Part shown: positions 15,838 through 63,171 of the stretch, in pieces
How positions within the stretch are numbered: the stretch's first letter is position 1
Layout: each line of letters begins with the position of its first letter
Assembly: GCA_001599715.1 (NCBI GenBank)
Contig: BCHU01000014.1
Coordinates: 558,001-622,000, forward strand
Source of the DNA: Phaeotremella fagi
Lineage: Eukaryota > Basidiomycota > Tremellomycetes > Tremellales > Phaeotremellaceae
Direction: 5' to 3'
Length of the DNA: 64,000 nucleotides
The notes under the pieces: generated by a model
Told to the model about the DNA's origin: nothing
The model's input: only the letters and a program-made list of their open reading frames with translations
Databases searched by the model: none
Position numbers and translations under genes: made by a program

Positions 15838-16392
15838 ATGAGTAAATTTGAGTCTCACTTTTTATACTCGCTTTGGGATAAAAGCGAAATCCACCCTTTC
15901 GAACCAAATCCCTCATGTCAAGTCGCCCTCTACACCAACGACTACTCAATGGATTCTAAAACATTCACTCTCGCCAAGACCCATTTCCCGATTCCCAGTT
16001 TCGAACAAGAAGATCGTGAAAAGATCGAAATGGGTCATAGATCACACTACGGTACGGAGTATCAAAAACTTCAAAAGTTCTTCAAGAGGAACTCAAGATA
16101 CTCTATCGTCTCCGAAAACAACACCACTAAAATTCAACTCATTGAAGATGATACCGCCCAACCTGCGGTCGTTACTCATTTTACCGCCTTTGATTTCTGG
16201 GAGGATGAGGATTCTGGTTATACAAGGCTTACCAATTACAGATGTCGTCCAGAAGAAGACGGTAATAGATGTTTTGCTGGGTTTTTCAAAATGGAAGGGG
16301 ATGAGGGTGAGAAAAGGGTTGCTGAGGGCGAGACAAAGGTTGCTGAGGGTGAGACAAAGGTTGCCGGGGATAGAACTGAGGGAGGGGAGTAA
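15838..16392 (+). CDS. tandem-array family protein, copy 1 (unknown function)
   Basis: This intronless gene encodes 184 residues with no signal peptide or membrane segment. It shares with the next gene the block NPSCQV-LYT-DY...FTL near residues 27-50 and GNR-FAGFFKMEGDE near residues 140-155. It carries Y/F-rich middle segments such as YQKLQKFFKRNSRY and IQLIEDD. The C terminus ends in short repeats (VAEGETK twice), which look like recent slippage. I do not recognise the family. Alternating polar and aromatic residues suggest a small beta-rich soluble protein. The ATG is preceded by a TATA box and pyrimidine stretch. Absence of introns in an intron-dense genome is notable. Confidence 0.7.
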   Translation: MSKFESHFLYSLWDKSEIHPFEPNPSCQVALYTNDYSMDSKTFTLAKTHFPIPSFEQEDREKIEMGHRSHYGTEYQKLQKFFKRNSRYSIVSENNTTKIQLIEDDTAQPAVVTHFTAFDFWEDEDSGYTRLTNYRCRPEEDGNRCFAGFFKMEGDEGEKRVAEGETKVAEGETKVAGDRTEGGE

Positions 16393-16724
16393 TCCCTTCC
16401 TTCGTTACTTCCTAAAAGTATCAAGTAGTGAAAGGATTCATTTAGTTTCGTGTTAGTTTCTAGTCTGTACAGTAGTGTTTTTGAAGTTATGATGATGATG
16501 ATGATGATGAGATTTCTATGAGGTTGCACCTTTCTCATGCGAACCTTTGTTGTCATGGACGACATCGGGCACATAATGAATATCCGCATTGACTCACATG
16601 AAAATAAATGCACTGAGAGGGATTGTAAATTCCGTTCCTATAATCGGACTATCGTTTCATGGATCCTGTGGAATGAAATTTATACCACCTCGAAGGACTC
16701 CCAAGGTGGATCAAGAACTCACTC

Positions 16725-16747
16725 TGTGGCATGACGAAAATGCCACA
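16725..16747. promoter_or_regulatory. inverted repeat TGTGGCA - 9 nt - TGCCACA
   Basis: This perfect 7-bp inverted repeat has a 9-nt spacer ending in GAAAA. The same arms and spacer length recur at 17962-17984 before copy 3. The centre is about 240 nt before the start codon. It is operator-like in form, and the binding factor is unknown. Confidence 0.55.
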
Positions 16748-16852
16748 CAGCCAACTCCTTACCGATACACGTTCTTTCCTTTGCGTGTTTGACCCTTTCT
16801 CTCTGAACAAAAGAGTGAGAAAAAACTGAATACACCGACTCGAATTCTGACA

Positions 16853-16867
16853 TGATCTCAAAGGAGG
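16853..16867 (+). promoter_or_regulatory. array promoter element TGATCTCAAAGGAGG
   Basis: This is the second copy of the element described at 15717, 106 nt after the inverted repeat and about 110 nt before the ATG of copy 2. The same spacing holds at copy 3 (103 nt). Confidence 0.45.
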
Positions 16868-16978
16868 AAAAAAATGGTTGATCTTTGGGGTGTATACAGT
16901 ATACTGGGGCTTCCAGTCTCGTTTCTTTCTCTTTTCCATATTCCAACTTTTACGACAAATATATTTTGAACATACAAT

Positions 16979-17527
16979 ATGTCTCTCCTTTTGAACAAAG
17001 TTTGGGCAAAAAGCTCTTACAGCAGCGAAGAAGAAAACCCTTCATGTCAAGTCGTCCTCTACACCTCCGACTACGATTCCGGAACATTCACTCTCGACCA
17101 GATCGATCTACCGGATCCCGTTATCTCGAGTGTCGATCTACCGGATCCCGTTATCTCGAGTGTCGATCACCACTACTTTGGGGGAGGAGTTGGTCGCTAC
17201 TACAGTCAAGAGCGTTCAAAACTTGGAGGATTCTTCAAGATGGGTTCAAGGTACACTCATACTTCCGAAGGCGACCTCACCAAATTTCAACTCATTCAAG
17301 ATGTTGGTACCCCTCAGTCAATGAAGGCTGCTAATGCTACTCATTTAAGGATCTGTCACTGGTACAGATATAATGGTAAAGCAAAGGTCACCGACACTAT
17401 TTTCCTGGATGAACAAAGAAAGGGTAATAGAAGTTTTGCTGGTTTTTTCAAAATGGAAGGAGATGAGGTTGAGACCGAGGTTGAGGGATGTGAAACGACC
17501 AAGGGAGAGGAGCAAACCCTTCCTTAG
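16979..17527 (+). CDS. tandem-array family protein, copy 2 (unknown function)
   Basis: This intronless gene encodes 182 residues. It shares NPSCQVVLYTSDY near residue 23 and RKGNRSFAGFFKMEGDE near residue 145 with copy 1, as well as FQLIQD in the middle. A perfect 30-nt direct duplication (17105-17134 and 17135-17164) gives LPDPVISSVD twice, inserted between the N-terminal block and the Tyr-rich middle. The length difference from copy 1 is small, so the insertion is tolerated. The C-terminal tail is Glu-rich with short valine-glutamate repeats. No known domain was recognised. Confidence 0.7.
   Translation: MSLLLNKVWAKSSYSSEEENPSCQVVLYTSDYDSGTFTLDQIDLPDPVISSVDLPDPVISSVDHHYFGGGVGRYYSQERSKLGGFFKMGSRYTHTSEGDLTKFQLIQDVGTPQSMKAANATHLRICHWYRYNGKAKVTDTIFLDEQRKGNRSFAGFFKMEGDEVETEVEGCETTKGEEQTLP
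17105..17164. repeat. 30-bp perfect direct repeat inside copy 2
   Basis: The 30-bp unit GATCTACCGG...CGAGTGTC occurs twice back to back without mismatch. It keeps the reading frame and adds ten residues. Perfect identity suggests a recent event. Confidence 0.9.
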
Positions 17528-17961
17528 TTACGTCGCAGATTCCTACAGGTACTGTATAGGTAGTGAAAGGGTTCGTTTAGTGTTTTTGATTAGCTTTTAC
17601 GTCAGTACGGTGGTGCTTTTGATGTTATGATGTGCTTGAAATTCAATACGCTAGAAAGGGAAATATTGTGAATTGAATCAATAGCCGACCGATAATCGAA
17701 TCCATGCTTCATGGATGCTGTGGAAAGTTACACCACTCGAAAGCGTTAGGTGAACCGGTACTCGTGCTGAAGTGACTTGATTGTTGGGGCTAACTCTTCT
17801 TTCGGCCCCTTACTTTGGACGTCCATAGTCTAAGATAGACTTGGCTCTTGCCTGTTTTGATCTTTTCGTATATCAAGCTAAGAGTCACTATAGGTAAACT
17901 TCGTTATTGTGTTTGCTTGTTGAGTTAATCAATTTACCGTAGCCTAACATCAATCGTTCGA

Positions 17962-17984
17962 TGTGGCAGAATGAAAATGCCACA
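17962..17984. promoter_or_regulatory. inverted repeat TGTGGCA - 9 nt - TGCCACA
   Basis: This has identical arms and spacer length to the element at 16725-16747. The spacer again ends in GAAAA. It lies 250 nt before the ATG of copy 3. Confidence 0.55.
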
Positions 17985-18086
17985 CCACCTTTTACCGAAT
18001 AATCTTTCCATTACTTTGCATGTTTGACCTTCTCTATGAACAAAAGAACTAAAATTGCGTGGTGATATCGACTCGATTGTGTTTTT

Positions 18087-18101
18087 TGATATCAAAGGAG
18101 G
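18087..18101 (+). promoter_or_regulatory. array promoter element TGATATCAAAGGAGG
   Basis: This is the third copy of the element described at 15717, 103 nt after the inverted repeat and followed by a TATATAT box. Confidence 0.45.
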
Positions 18102-18233
18102 TTTATAATGGTTGACTTGGGGAGTGCAGTGTATCTATATATGGGGTCTTCTACCCTCGTTTCTTTCTCTCTTTTACATCCATCCATTACAACAACTGAT
18201 AACTTGTAATTTGAACACTCCAACGAATCAGCT

Positions 18234-18839
18234 ATGTCAACTGCTTTCCAAGATACTTTCAAATATTTTCCTGCAGATGGTACTTTCATGCGAAAGCCAT
18301 GTCCCGCCGCCGTCTATACCACTGATTTCAATCCCGAAACCAAAGAGTTTACCGTCAGCGACTTCAAATCATATCACGAAACATACATCTATCCCAAGTA
18401 CTCGGCAAATAGTTGCAAACACCTCAGCCTAAAGCTCACCGAAAACTTCGCCAAAGGTTCACGCTTCAAGGTCGGCGAAGAGTGGTGGGAGACTTTGATA
18501 AAATTGGATTCAAACTCCCAACCGATTATGGATGGAGAAAATCGTCCGGTCACCACCCAAATCTGTGAGGGTTTCAAACAGATGACTTGGGAGGGAGAAT
18601 TTTCAGAAGATAATTTGGTTTTGGTTGAGGAAGAAGGTGAAGTTAAGGCTACAGATGAAGAAGGTGAAGGTAAGCCTACAGACGAAGAAGAAGAAGAGAA
18701 AGAAAAACCATCATTCGGCAGAAGCTTGCTAAACAGACTCGAGTCCCTCAAGGAAATCACGTCCAGCTCCGAAGCCAGCTCTACGCCAAGTACAAGTACG
18801 GGTATCAATCGAGCCTTTGTTGGTTTCTTCGTTGGCTGA
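18234..18839 (+). CDS. tandem-array family protein, copy 3 (unknown function)
   Basis: This intronless gene encodes 201 residues and is more diverged than copies 1 and 2. It keeps the N-terminal pattern KPCPAAVYTTDFNPETKEFTV (compare PSCQVVLYTSDY...FTL) and the C-terminal NRAFVGFFVG (compare NRSFAGFFKM). Between them lies an acidic low-complexity stretch (about residues 130-160, repeats of ATDEEGEG and KPTDEEEEEK) and a Ser-rich region. It ends right after the FVGFF block, whereas copies 1 and 2 carry extra tails. The function is unknown. Membership of the family rests on the two end motifs, position and the shared promoter. Confidence 0.65.
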   Translation: MSTAFQDTFKYFPADGTFMRKPCPAAVYTTDFNPETKEFTVSDFKSYHETYIYPKYSANSCKHLSLKLTENFAKGSRFKVGEEWWETLIKLDSNSQPIMDGENRPVTTQICEGFKQMTWEGEFSEDNLVLVEEEGEVKATDEEGEGKPTDEEEEEKEKPSFGRSLLNRLESLKEITSSSEASSTPSTSTGINRAFVGFFVG

Positions 18840-51723: not shown

Positions 51724-52517
51724 TCAATCCCGTTTCCGCCAATCGTTCCTAATCACCTTCTCCCCCCAACCCCCCTCTCGACCACCAACAGTAAATCCAC
51801 CAACACCACCCAAGAATTCCCAATATTTCTCCAAGAAACTTCTAAATCTCCCGAATACAGATGAAGGATGGTAGAGCGGTAGATATTCTGTACAAATGAA
51901 ATAGATGGTTCCGGTCGATAGACCTATTAGATAACCTATAACGATTTGTTTGGGTGAATGATAATGCAGATGGTACCTAATTGGGTTTCCATTGTTAACG
52001 GGAAAAAAAAACAGTATTTTGTTGCAAGTGTGGTATGGACCTACCTGGAATAAGGAACTAAGAAGGACCAAAGAATCAAACCAAAAACATAAACCCTACT
52101 CCTCCATCTCCTCACAACCAAATATCTCTCCCCAACCCACCCCCCACCACCCCCATATCTCCGACCCAAAGACCAAAAATAACCCATACCCCAAGAAACC
52201 AAAAACCCCGCAAACTGCGAATGACTACTAGGCATCCCATACCCATCCCCAACCTCCCCAAACCCCAAATAAGGTCTATCACCTTTCAAGAACCTTTTCA
52301 ACACCAGATTAAACAGTTCATTACCCAATTGTCCAAGTGTTAAGATGGTGATGGAGAAGGAACGGGTGAAGATGATTAGGGTTGTGTAGGAGACGAAAAG
52401 GAATATTGGGGAGAGGGAGAGGAGGGTTAAGGGGATTGAGAGGGGGTGGGTGGGGTCGTAGAGGATATGTGTTAGGGTGAATGATTTTAGGGGTGGGAGG
52501 GGGTTTAGGATACCCAT
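51724..52517 (-). CDS. CAX4: dolichyldiphosphatase (Cwh8/Cax4, PAP2 fold)
   Basis: The first exon (about 52048-52517) starts MGILNPLPPLKSFTLTHILY. It holds the PAP2 signatures NLVLKRFLKGDRPYLGF (motif 1, K-x6-RP) and YGMPSSHSQFAGFLVSWGMG (motif 2, PSSHS). After one intron the third signature YSRYHLHYHSPKQIVIGYLI (SRx5H) appears. Four to five membrane helices are visible. The enzyme cleaves dolichyl diphosphate in the ER lumen to recycle the carrier for N-glycosylation. Length (about 240 residues) fits yeast and human enzymes. The stop follows NDWRKRD. An upstream GTG-initiated extension in frame is not needed. Confidence 0.92.
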
Positions 52518-61674: not shown

Positions 61675-61878
61675 ATGAACCCAATCACAATTTTCACAGC
61701 TGTACTCGCCCTCGCCACTGGCGTTATTGCACTCCCAGCCCCAGCCCCAGCACCCGTTGCAGAAGGAGCTACTGCAGAAGGATTCGGTGGTGGTTTCGGT
61801 CGTGAGTCGAATACATATTTCCGTCTCGATTCAACGAATACTGATTTGTAAACAGAAAGTGGACCAGGCGCTTATTAA
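61675..61878 (+). CDS. 49-residue secreted peptide precursor 1 (Qsp1-like)
   Basis: Exon 1 (61675-61801) encodes a signal peptide (MNPITIFTAVLALATGVIA), an Ala-Pro stretch (LPAPAPAPVAEGATAE) and GFGGGFG. A GTGAGT intron (61802-61855) in phase 1 is followed by exon 2 encoding QSGPGAY and the stop. The product is 49 residues. The mature tail FGQSGPGAY is Gly-rich and ends G-A-Y. Length, intron phase and ending are the same in the second gene at 62911. The design (signal peptide, short spacer, Gly-rich C-terminal peptide) resembles the precursor of the Cryptococcus quorum-sensing peptide Qsp1, whose core is similarly FG...GGAY. That link is from memory and unproven. Confidence 0.75.
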
Positions 61879-62910
61879 ACAATTCACTCTCTTCTTCAAC
61901 AACTTCGTTTTATTCAAATGTAATCCAAACTCCAAACTCCAAACTCCAAACTCCAAACTCCAAACTCCAAACTCCAAACTCCAAACTCCAAACTCCAAAC
62001 TCCAAACTCCAAAATCCTCTCTCTATCTCGTTGATCGGACGCTATGATTGTATTTGATATGGTGGGGTTGGTGAACTGGTCGTGGTGGTGTCAAGATGCT
62101 TATCAGTGGCTATAGTATTGGTTGTCTGGTATGAATAATATCCTATCCTATTCACGGTGATCCGGCGATAATTGTTTTGAGTGGCCAGTGGGTTTTTATC
62201 AAAGGGGATTGGATCGAATATTACTTCCAATGCATCCATCCCCTTCCTATAACCGTGCACTGAACATCCAGTGAATAATTGTGTTCATACATGATGATAT
62301 GATGTTGTACGGGTGCGAAACATCAAAGGTACTCGTCATGGATTGATGTGGTGCCTCTTTTGGGTTGCACATGTGTCATGATAAAAATAGATTTCTTTTG
62401 TCAAATAAGTTAAATGTTGTAGCTAAGAAATTCGTTGGTCTCCACATGTCGATCCACAAGGTCATATTCGACTGATGTAACGTAACGCAAGTGAATGAGC
62501 CTAAGCAACAGTTGCCTGAAGACAAGGTAGAATATTGTAAATCCAGGTAAATTAACTTGAATCGTCAAGGAACGATCAAAAAAATCAAAGCTCAGACTGC
62601 AATTACGATACGATGACACTCAAAGGGATAGTTACTTTAGACAAGGTATCCTTTGGCCTTCCTTTCGAAACATTACAACCATCACAGAGACAGATTACGA
62701 TTCAGTCCGTAGTCACCGCCTCCCCTCCCCTCCCCAATTACCGCTGTCTTGTTTCAACGTATAAAAGATAAACATATCTGATAATCAATTTCATCTTCTC
62801 TTCTGAACATCTAACTGAACATTTAAACACCTTTACAATCAATCCTACAAACAGTAGTTGACTCAACCTCAAACACAAACACAACACACGACACCAGTTA
62901 ATTTGCCACA
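61879..62910. other. intergenic between the two peptide genes
   Basis: This contains the heptamer minisatellite at 61924-62014 in the 3' flank of the first peptide gene and a TATAAAA box at about 62760 before the second. No other gene is seen. Confidence 0.5.
61924..62014. repeat. heptanucleotide minisatellite (TCCAAAC)n
   Basis: Twelve perfect copies of TCCAAAC run from 61924 to 62007, followed by one variant unit TCCAAAA. It lies about 45 nt after the stop codon of peptide precursor 1, so probably in its 3' untranslated region. It is not a telomere-type repeat. Confidence 0.95.
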
Positions 62911-63171
62911 ATGAAATTCATCGCTTTGATCACTTCACTCGCTGTCGCTTTTATGGTCGTCGCTTCACCCGTCGCTGAAGCTGAAGCTAATGCTAGTCCT
63001 GATGGAGCTGAAGCAGCTTCATTCGGAGGATTCGGTGGAGGTGGTGAGTGCTTTCGTTCATCTTATACCCTACTTTCTCAATCGACATATGTTTTCATGA
63101 TTCCTTTGACATGGGTTCTTATCTTAACTTCTCACTGATTCTTGTTGATATTAGGTGCCGGTGCTTACTGA
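62911..63171 (+). CDS. 49-residue secreted peptide precursor 2 (Qsp1-like)
   Basis: Exon 1 (62911-63043) encodes a signal peptide (MKFIALITSLAVAFMVVAS), an acidic Ala-rich spacer (PVAEAEANASPDGAEAA) and SFGGFGGG. A phase-1 intron (63044-63154) is followed by exon 2 encoding GAGAY and the stop. The product is 49 residues, exactly as precursor 1, with the same intron phase and the same G-A-Y end. Here the tail is FGGFGGGGAGAY. A TATAAAA box lies about 150 nt upstream and the ATG context is CACAATG. The first exon read through the intron would give a longer frame, but the donor and acceptor are good and the paralogue supports splicing. Confidence 0.75.

What the first reader, a model, noticed from the sequence alone, without database searches (positions are those of the whole stretch)
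61675..63171. Two tandem 49-residue secreted precursors with a shared Gly-rich G-A-Y ending
Seen: two adjacent plus-strand genes each encode a signal peptide, a short Ala-rich spacer and a Gly/Phe-rich tail ending G-A-Y. Both have one phase-1 intron just before the last 5-7 residues and both are exactly 49 residues long. The spacers are quite different while length, architecture and tail are kept, which points to selection on the C-terminal peptide. Known: Cryptococcus neoformans secretes an 11-residue quorum-sensing peptide, Qsp1, cut from a small precursor by the protease Pqp1, with an FG...GGAY core. Inference: these could be divergent Qsp1-type signals, here ending at Y and present as a pair.
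Basis: partly seen in the sequence, partly recalled or inferred. Interest (0 to 1): 0.85.

Follow-up and report, generated by a model that had tools for sequence, protein, structure and literature searches.

The report
Three Qsp1-like peptide precursors beside transporter
A relative of the yeast Cryptococcus appears to carry three small genes for secreted glycine-rich peptides around the gene of a peptide importer, which looks like an expanded version of the fungus's known peptide-based crowd-sensing system.

Summary
Two plus-strand genes (61675-61878, 62911-63171) each encode a 49-residue precursor: signal peptide, Ala-rich spacer, tail ending G-A-Y, split by a canonical phase-1 intron. Of the 58 uninterrupted GAY-stop sites in the 22.6-Mb genome, only these two give a small Gly-rich secreted precursor.

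Beyond the window's end lies more. A third, 48-residue precursor of the same build lies 11 kb on (C14:632134-632339). All three tails read GFG-x4-GA-(Y/W): GFGQSGPGAY, GFGGGGAGAY, GFGGGAPGAW. Between the second and third lies an OPT oligopeptide transporter gene, one of about six in the genome.

In C. neoformans, QSP1 (CNAG_03012) adjoins OPT1 (CNAG_03013), and CNAG_03014 is a dolichyldiphosphatase. A gene of that type, without a second match in this genome, lies 9 kb left of the first peptide.

Best reading: an expanded, diverged QSP1 locus with three candidate signals and an importer. Expression, processing, uptake and function are untested. New variant of a known kind.

The parts
61675..61801 (+). 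peptide gene 1, exon 1: signal peptide, AP-rich spacer, start of Gly-rich tail
   Evidence: no second match in the genome
61802..61855 (+). gene 1 intron, phase 1, GTGAGT..AG, CTGAT branch-like site
   Evidence: predicted, no RNA evidence
61856..61878 (+). peptide gene 1, exon 2, encodes (Q)SGPGAY-stop; full tail GFGQSGPGAY
62760..62767 (+). TATAAAAG, TATA-like box 151 nt before the gene 2 start codon
62911..63043 (+). peptide gene 2, exon 1: signal peptide, SPVAEAEANASP spacer, start of Gly-rich tail
   Evidence: the only genome match of gene 3 besides itself (E 0.018)
63044..63154 (+). gene 2 intron, phase 1, GTGAGT..TTAG, CTGAT branch-like site
   Evidence: predicted, no RNA evidence
63155..63171 (+). 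peptide gene 2, exon 2, encodes (G)AGAY-stop; full tail GFGGGGAGAY
51724..52517 (-). PAP2 phosphatase gene of dolichyldiphosphatase type (type read from its sequence), 2-exon model chosen among six alternatives; synteny marker (CNAG_03014 in C. neoformans)
   Evidence: (PF01569 E 2.9e-13); CNAG_03014 from PMC9765290
57273..59534 (-). fungal-specific transcription factor gene (PF04082), ends approximate; candidate ASG1-type neighbour, orthology untested
   Evidence: joined exons; single exons gave no hit; CNAG_03018 = ASG101 from PMC4430228

Best explanation
This is the QSP1-OPT1 locus of a Tremellales yeast related to Cryptococcus, in which the signal precursor is present as three diverged genes: two in tandem before the OPT gene and one beyond it, past a calponin-homology-domain gene. 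Shown from sequence: three short secreted-type precursors with one predicted phase-1 intron each and a fixed decapeptide ending GFG-x4-GA-(Y/W); an OPT transporter gene beside them; a dolichyldiphosphatase-like gene nearby. Inferred: each precursor is secreted; a wall- or medium-borne protease cuts it near the GFG to free a peptide of about 9-11 residues with a C-terminal aromatic residue; the OPT protein imports one or more of these peptides; and they act inside the cell on transcription as a density or self signal.
For: Gene models and architecture. Only 2 of 58 uninterrupted GAY-stop sites genome-wide are small Gly-rich precursors, both here; the third member ends GAW and was the only positive among the 21 of 65 GAW-stop sites examined. 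Six of the last ten columns agree in all three (aromatics merged), reached in 16 of 300,000 shuffles of the last 15 residues and 3 of 300,000 of the last 20. Gene 3 searched against the whole genome finds only gene 2 besides itself, E 0.018. OPT (PF03169) gene at C14:624103-626437; the 26 matches form 6 loci in 22.6 Mb, a lower bound. C. neoformans, from passages: QSP1 = CNAG_03012 (named CQS1), next to CNAG_03013 on Chr3, OPT1 = 03013, dolichyldiphosphatase = 03014, and the route secreted proQsp1, Pqp1 cut, Opt1 import. In Qsp1, changing the G of G-A-Y to A gives the published inactive control peptide (PMC5959073); that G is kept in all three tails here.
Against: Sequence similarity to Qsp1 is not significant alone (gene 1: 2041 of 20,000 shuffles reach the score; gene 2: 1675; gene 3: 6455). 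The Qsp1 ending GAYPW is encoded nowhere uninterrupted in the genome. Gene order is not identical: the dolichyldiphosphatase-like gene lies on the far side of the peptides from the OPT gene. OPT orthology to OPT1 is untested. Exon 2 starts at different points of the tail (4, 6 or 7 full residues left). No RNA, peptide or functional data. No homologues in the protein database, though that database seems to hold few such fungi.
Confidence: 0.7

Rival explanations
1. The three genes encode small structural or antimicrobial Gly-rich secreted peptides (cell-wall or medium proteins) with no signalling role; the OPT neighbour takes up peptides as food and its proximity is incidental.
For: Gly/Ala-rich tails resemble generic Gly-rich secreted proteins; no Pfam family above its cut-off; similarity to Qsp1 alone is weak.
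Against: Tails are of fixed length and motif at the very C-terminus in three otherwise different precursors; with about 6 OPT loci in 22.6 Mb an OPT gene as the next gene is unlikely by chance (inference); the same kind of neighbour adjoins QSP1 in C. neoformans.
Confidence: 0.17
2. Pheromone-like maturation by dipeptidyl trimming: after signal peptidase, an X-Ala/X-Pro dipeptidyl peptidase (Ste13/DPP-IV type, recalled) removes the spacer two residues at a time, leaving a 19-20-residue peptide rather than a decapeptide.
For: From the predicted cut, gene 2 runs SP-VA-EA-EA-NA-SP (6 in-register dipeptides, 164 of 100,000 shuffles) and gene 1 LP-AP-AP-AP-VA (5; 1657 of 100,000).
Against: Gene 3 has only one such dipeptide (50,097 of 100,000 shuffles reach that); the runs partly reflect A/P-rich composition; the cut sites are rule-based guesses.
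Confidence: 0.08
3. The exons are chance open frames and splice sites and not genes.
For: No transcript evidence; no database homologues.
Against: Three loci with signal peptide, GTGAGT donors, CTGAY branch-like sites, phase-1 introns and the same tail lie within 12.7 kb. The same scan over every locus then held (296 kb, overlaps and part of the window included) plus the window gave no other two-exon hit, only two implausible one-exon frames.
Confidence: 0.04

Closest known systems
Qsp1 (Cqs1) quorum-sensing peptide system of Cryptococcus neoformans: QSP1, PQP1, OPT1, LIV3, CQS2
   Same: Short secreted precursor; tail with F-G near its start and G-A-aromatic near its end, including the G whose change to A inactivates Qsp1; encoded next to an OPT transporter gene; dolichyldiphosphatase-type gene nearby; two loci of the Gti1_Pac2 family in the genome, which I recall as the WOPR family of Liv3/Wor1.
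   Different: Three precursors, where the passages read speak of one QSP1 gene (one review, PMC6571750, writes 'QSP1-4' without explaining it); tails GFG-x4-GA-(Y/W) instead of NFG-x3-GAY-PW; no GAYPW; local gene order differs.
Yeast alpha-factor type precursors with Ste13 (X-Ala) spacers (recalled)
   Same: Gene 2 spacer contains EAEA and an in-register run of X-Ala/X-Pro dipeptides.
   Different: No dibasic Kex2 sites, no repeats, and gene 3 lacks the dipeptide run.
Basidiomycete lipopeptide mating pheromones (CAAX; recalled)
   Same: Small precursors, often in several copies.
   Different: The genes here have a signal peptide and no C-terminal CAAX, so they are a different kind.

Membership tests
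Qsp1 signal family | Small precursor with N-terminal signal peptide | tested here: met
   Rule-based hydropathy and cleavage-site test; SignalP not available
Qsp1 signal family | Mature sequence NFGAPGGAYPW or a close match | tested here: not met
   GAYPW absent; FGAPGG occurs once, inside a Q-rich frame; similarity to Qsp1 not above shuffles
Qsp1 signal family | Gene adjacent to an OPT transporter gene | tested here: met
   OPT gene's first in-frame ATG at C14:622949, 1.8 kb after gene 2; QSP1 and OPT1 are CNAG_03012 and 03013
Qsp1 signal family | Further conserved neighbours (CNAG_03014 dolichyldiphosphatase, CNAG_03018 ASG1-type factor) | tested here: inconclusive
   A dolichyldiphosphatase-like PAP2 gene and a fungal transcription factor gene lie to the left, but order differs and orthology was not tested
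Qsp1 signal family | Release from proQsp1 by Pqp1 | not testable with these tools
   Needs protease mutants or peptide mass spectrometry
Qsp1 signal family | Import by Opt1 and action inside the cell | not testable with these tools
   Needs uptake and deletion assays
OPT transporter family (neighbour gene) | PF03169 match over most of the profile | tested here: met
   Exon matches span profile positions 2-599 of 623 at C14:624103-626437; orthology to OPT1 itself not tested

The most novel reading that the evidence does not exclude
A eukaryotic intracellular quorum-sensing system whose signal gene has multiplied into three distinct ligands (two ending in Tyr, one in Trp) around one importer, so that one OPT transporter reads a blend of peptides: a self-recognition or stage code like the peptide-import systems of Gram-positive bacteria, rather than one density signal.
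Probability: 0.3. Interest if true: 0.8.

Novelty: new variant of a known kind. Interest (0 to 1): 0.62.

Why it matters
Qsp1 is described in the passages read as a secreted fungal signal that is imported and acts inside the cell. How such a signal evolves, and which residues the transporter and the receptor read, I take to be open. A relative with three natural variants that share a fixed frame (GFG-x4-GA-aromatic) beside the same kind of transporter would give a natural experiment on ligand specificity, and would show that the signal can diverge and multiply while the importer stays beside it.

Tried and rejected
Homologue searches in the 5.8-billion-protein database with gene 2 (4 candidates) and with the three-precursor alignment (818 candidates): none at E <= 10. 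This is uninformative, because a 519-aa protein of the same window found only two distant relatives at E <= 1e-5. Gene 1 or 3 alone was not searched there. Pfam: none for genes 1 and 3, DIM below cut-off for gene 2. Rfam: none in the window at gathering scores.

A hidden true Qsp1: GAYPW 0 hits; AYPW before TRR 1 hit, not a stop and in a frame full of stops; FGAPGG 1 hit in a Q-rich frame. An intron splitting the motif could still hide one.

A recent tandem copy: no alignable DNA among the three gene regions (from 800 nt upstream) beyond 10-12-base words, so any duplication is old.

Processing by Kex2: no dibasic sites in the three precursors (read). Dipeptidyl trimming: kept as a rival.

Flanks of the other five OPT loci: only the short flanks that came with the match loci were scanned, so pairing of peptides with other OPT genes is untested further out.

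The key papers on Qsp1 (Homer 2016, Tian 2018) are not held, so the proQsp1 sequence, its intron and its published species distribution were not seen.

In checking this report I mended one point: the inactive Qsp1 variant changes the G of GAY itself, which is kept in all three tails, so it now counts mildly for the reading, not against it.

Full report
Observation. Reading the DNA and splicing at GTGAGT...AG gives two 49-residue products at the stated coordinates: MNPITIFTAVLALATGVIALPAPAPAPVAEGATAEGFGGGFGQSGPGAY and MKFIALITSLAVAFMVVASPVAEAEANASPDGAEAASFGGFGGGGAGAY. Both introns are phase 1, with GTGAGT donors and a CTGAT branch-like site starting 15 or 20 nt before the end of the intron; gene 2 has TATAAAAG 151 nt before its ATG. 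Alternative acceptors exist but give other endings.

More than chance. The pattern GGNGCNTAYTRR occurs 79 times in the 22.6-Mb genome, below its reversed control of 129. Of these, 21 end in TGG and were dropped; all 58 with a true stop were examined for one- or two-exon models with a hydrophobic N-terminus. Three gave a model: these two and a 126-aa hydrophobic artefact. The two real ones have their stops 1.3 kb apart. Genes with an intron inside the last codons would be missed.

A third member. A scan of the window's last 19 kb plus the next 28 kb of the contig for small secreted precursors with Gly-rich ends found genes 1 and 2 (each with one alternative splicing), one implausible one-exon frame near 52241, and a third gene, C14:632134-632254 plus 632314-632339, 48 aa: MQFAAVFTALIAATVAVAAPLTKTAATAAASSSGAAGAGFGGGAPGAW, with a 59-nt phase-1 intron, GTGAGT donor, CTGAC branch-like site and TATATAAA 126 nt upstream. 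The end coordinate follows; one search ran three bases past the stop. The same kind of scan over all loci then held (296 kb, overlaps included, and partly within the window) plus the window gave only these three genes as two-exon hits, with alternative splicings of genes 1 and 2, and two implausible one-exon frames. Among GAW-stop sites, 95 match (reversed control 107), 65 have a true stop, 21 were examined with under 300 nt each for the 20 fetched ones, and gene 3 was the only one with a model; 44 remain unexamined.

Shared tail. Aligned from the C-terminus the tails are GFGQSGPGAY, GFGGGGAGAY, GFGGGAPGAW. GFG, GA and a final aromatic are kept in all three and the spacing is exact. With aromatics merged, 6 of 10 columns agree in all three; this is reached in 16 of 300,000 shuffles of the last 15 residues and in 3 of 300,000 shuffles of the last 20. 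A whole-genome search with gene 3 returns itself and gene 2 (E 0.018, 42% identity) and nothing else at E <= 10; genes 1 and 2 as queries return only themselves. That search scores only the best candidates of a first look. No DNA-level similarity is left beyond 10-12-base words, so the copies are old or strongly diverged.

Surroundings. The next gene downstream of gene 2 is an OPT oligopeptide transporter. PF03169 exon matches lie at C14:624103-626437 and span profile positions 2-599 of 623; the 26 matches in the genome fall into 6 loci, a lower bound. The open frame just before them carries the start of the TIGR00727 (OPT) profile (E 0.0024) and its first in-frame ATG is at C14:622949, 1.8 kb after gene 2; I did not build a full gene model. 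Beyond it is a gene with a calponin-homology-domain match that I take for an alpha-actinin (inference), and then gene 3. To the left on the minus strand are a fungal transcription factor gene (PF04082 E 4.4e-12 on exons joined by eye; single exons gave no hit), an AN1 zinc-finger gene and, 9 kb from gene 1, a PAP2 phosphatase (PF01569 E 2.9e-13 with the two-exon model; the exon alone is below the cut-off) that I read as of dolichyldiphosphatase type, with no other match in the genome at E <= 0.01.

Comparison with C. neoformans, from passages: CNAG_03012 is qsp1 (PMC6687208) and is listed as CQS1 (PMC8561399); [quoted passage not shown] CNAG_03013 is OPT1 (PMC8092302); CNAG_03014 encodes a dolichyldiphosphatase (PMC9765290); CNAG_03018 is ASG101, a zinc-finger factor (PMC4430228). 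So a peptide precursor gene next to an OPT gene, with a dolichyldiphosphatase gene close by, is shared; the exact order is not. The window's transcription factor might correspond to ASG101, which was not tested.

Mechanism. In C. neoformans Qsp1 is secreted as a pro-peptide, cut outside by the wall-associated serine protease Pqp1, and imported by Opt1 to act inside (PMC7537855, passages; PMC5959062; PMC6571750). By position and build I infer the same route here, with three peptides. In Qsp1 the control peptide NFGAPGAAYPW, in which the G of GAY is A, is inactive (PMC5959073); that G is kept in all three tails. The step from precursor to mature peptide is unknown: the shared decapeptide suggests a cut near GFG, while the in-register X-Ala/X-Pro runs after the predicted signal-peptide cut in gene 2 (164 of 100,000 shuffles) and gene 1 (1657 of 100,000) suggest dipeptidyl trimming, which gene 3 does not share. 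Two Gti1_Pac2 loci are present; I recall this as the WOPR family, and Liv3, whose level Qsp1 controls, is called a homologue of Wor1.

Against. By sequence alone the tails are not significantly like Qsp1 (2041, 1675 and 6455 of 20,000 shuffles reach the score). GAYPW is absent. OPT orthology, expression, processing, import and function are untested. The protein database gave nothing but seems to cover such fungi poorly.

Organism. Not named. The genome has 22.6 Mb in 24 contigs; C1-C14 are each 0.96 Mb or longer and C15 is 0.42 Mb (lengths). This fits Cryptococcus or a 14-chromosome Kwoniella as described in PMC11185503 (passages: average sizes 19.2 and 22.9 Mb); window G+C is 42%. This is inference.

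Novelty. PMC9790007 (passages) states that key components of the Qsp1 system are distributed in the same taxonomic group as CUA1, Cryptococcaceae, so an orthologous locus in a relative is expected. I saw no report of several Qsp1-like precursors or of GA-Y/W tails in searches of the held library; these are listings, cut short (20 of 42; 40 of 43; 4 of 6; 15 of 517; 15 of 573), and the main Qsp1 papers are not held. One review passage writes 'QSP1-4' without explanation. I file it as a new variant of a known kind: it likely works like Qsp1; as a strict Qsp1 the sequence feature is not met.

Noticed in passing
61924-62017: A tandem array of 13.4 copies of a 7-base unit (TCCAAAC, 98% match) lies just after gene 1, perhaps in its 3' untranslated region.
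   Followed up: no
L005:2135-2340 (C14:632134-632339): Third precursor gene of the same family, outside the window, ending GAW.
   Followed up: yes
L004:2950-6650 approx. (C14:622949-626650 approx.): OPT oligopeptide transporter gene with a long, low-complexity N-terminal stretch of about 345 residues before the first OPT-profile match.
   Followed up: partly
15838-18839: Three nearby open frames of 182-201 aa with related-looking beginnings (NPSCQVALYT, NPSCQVVLYT, PCPAAVYTTDF), perhaps a local gene family.
   Followed up: no
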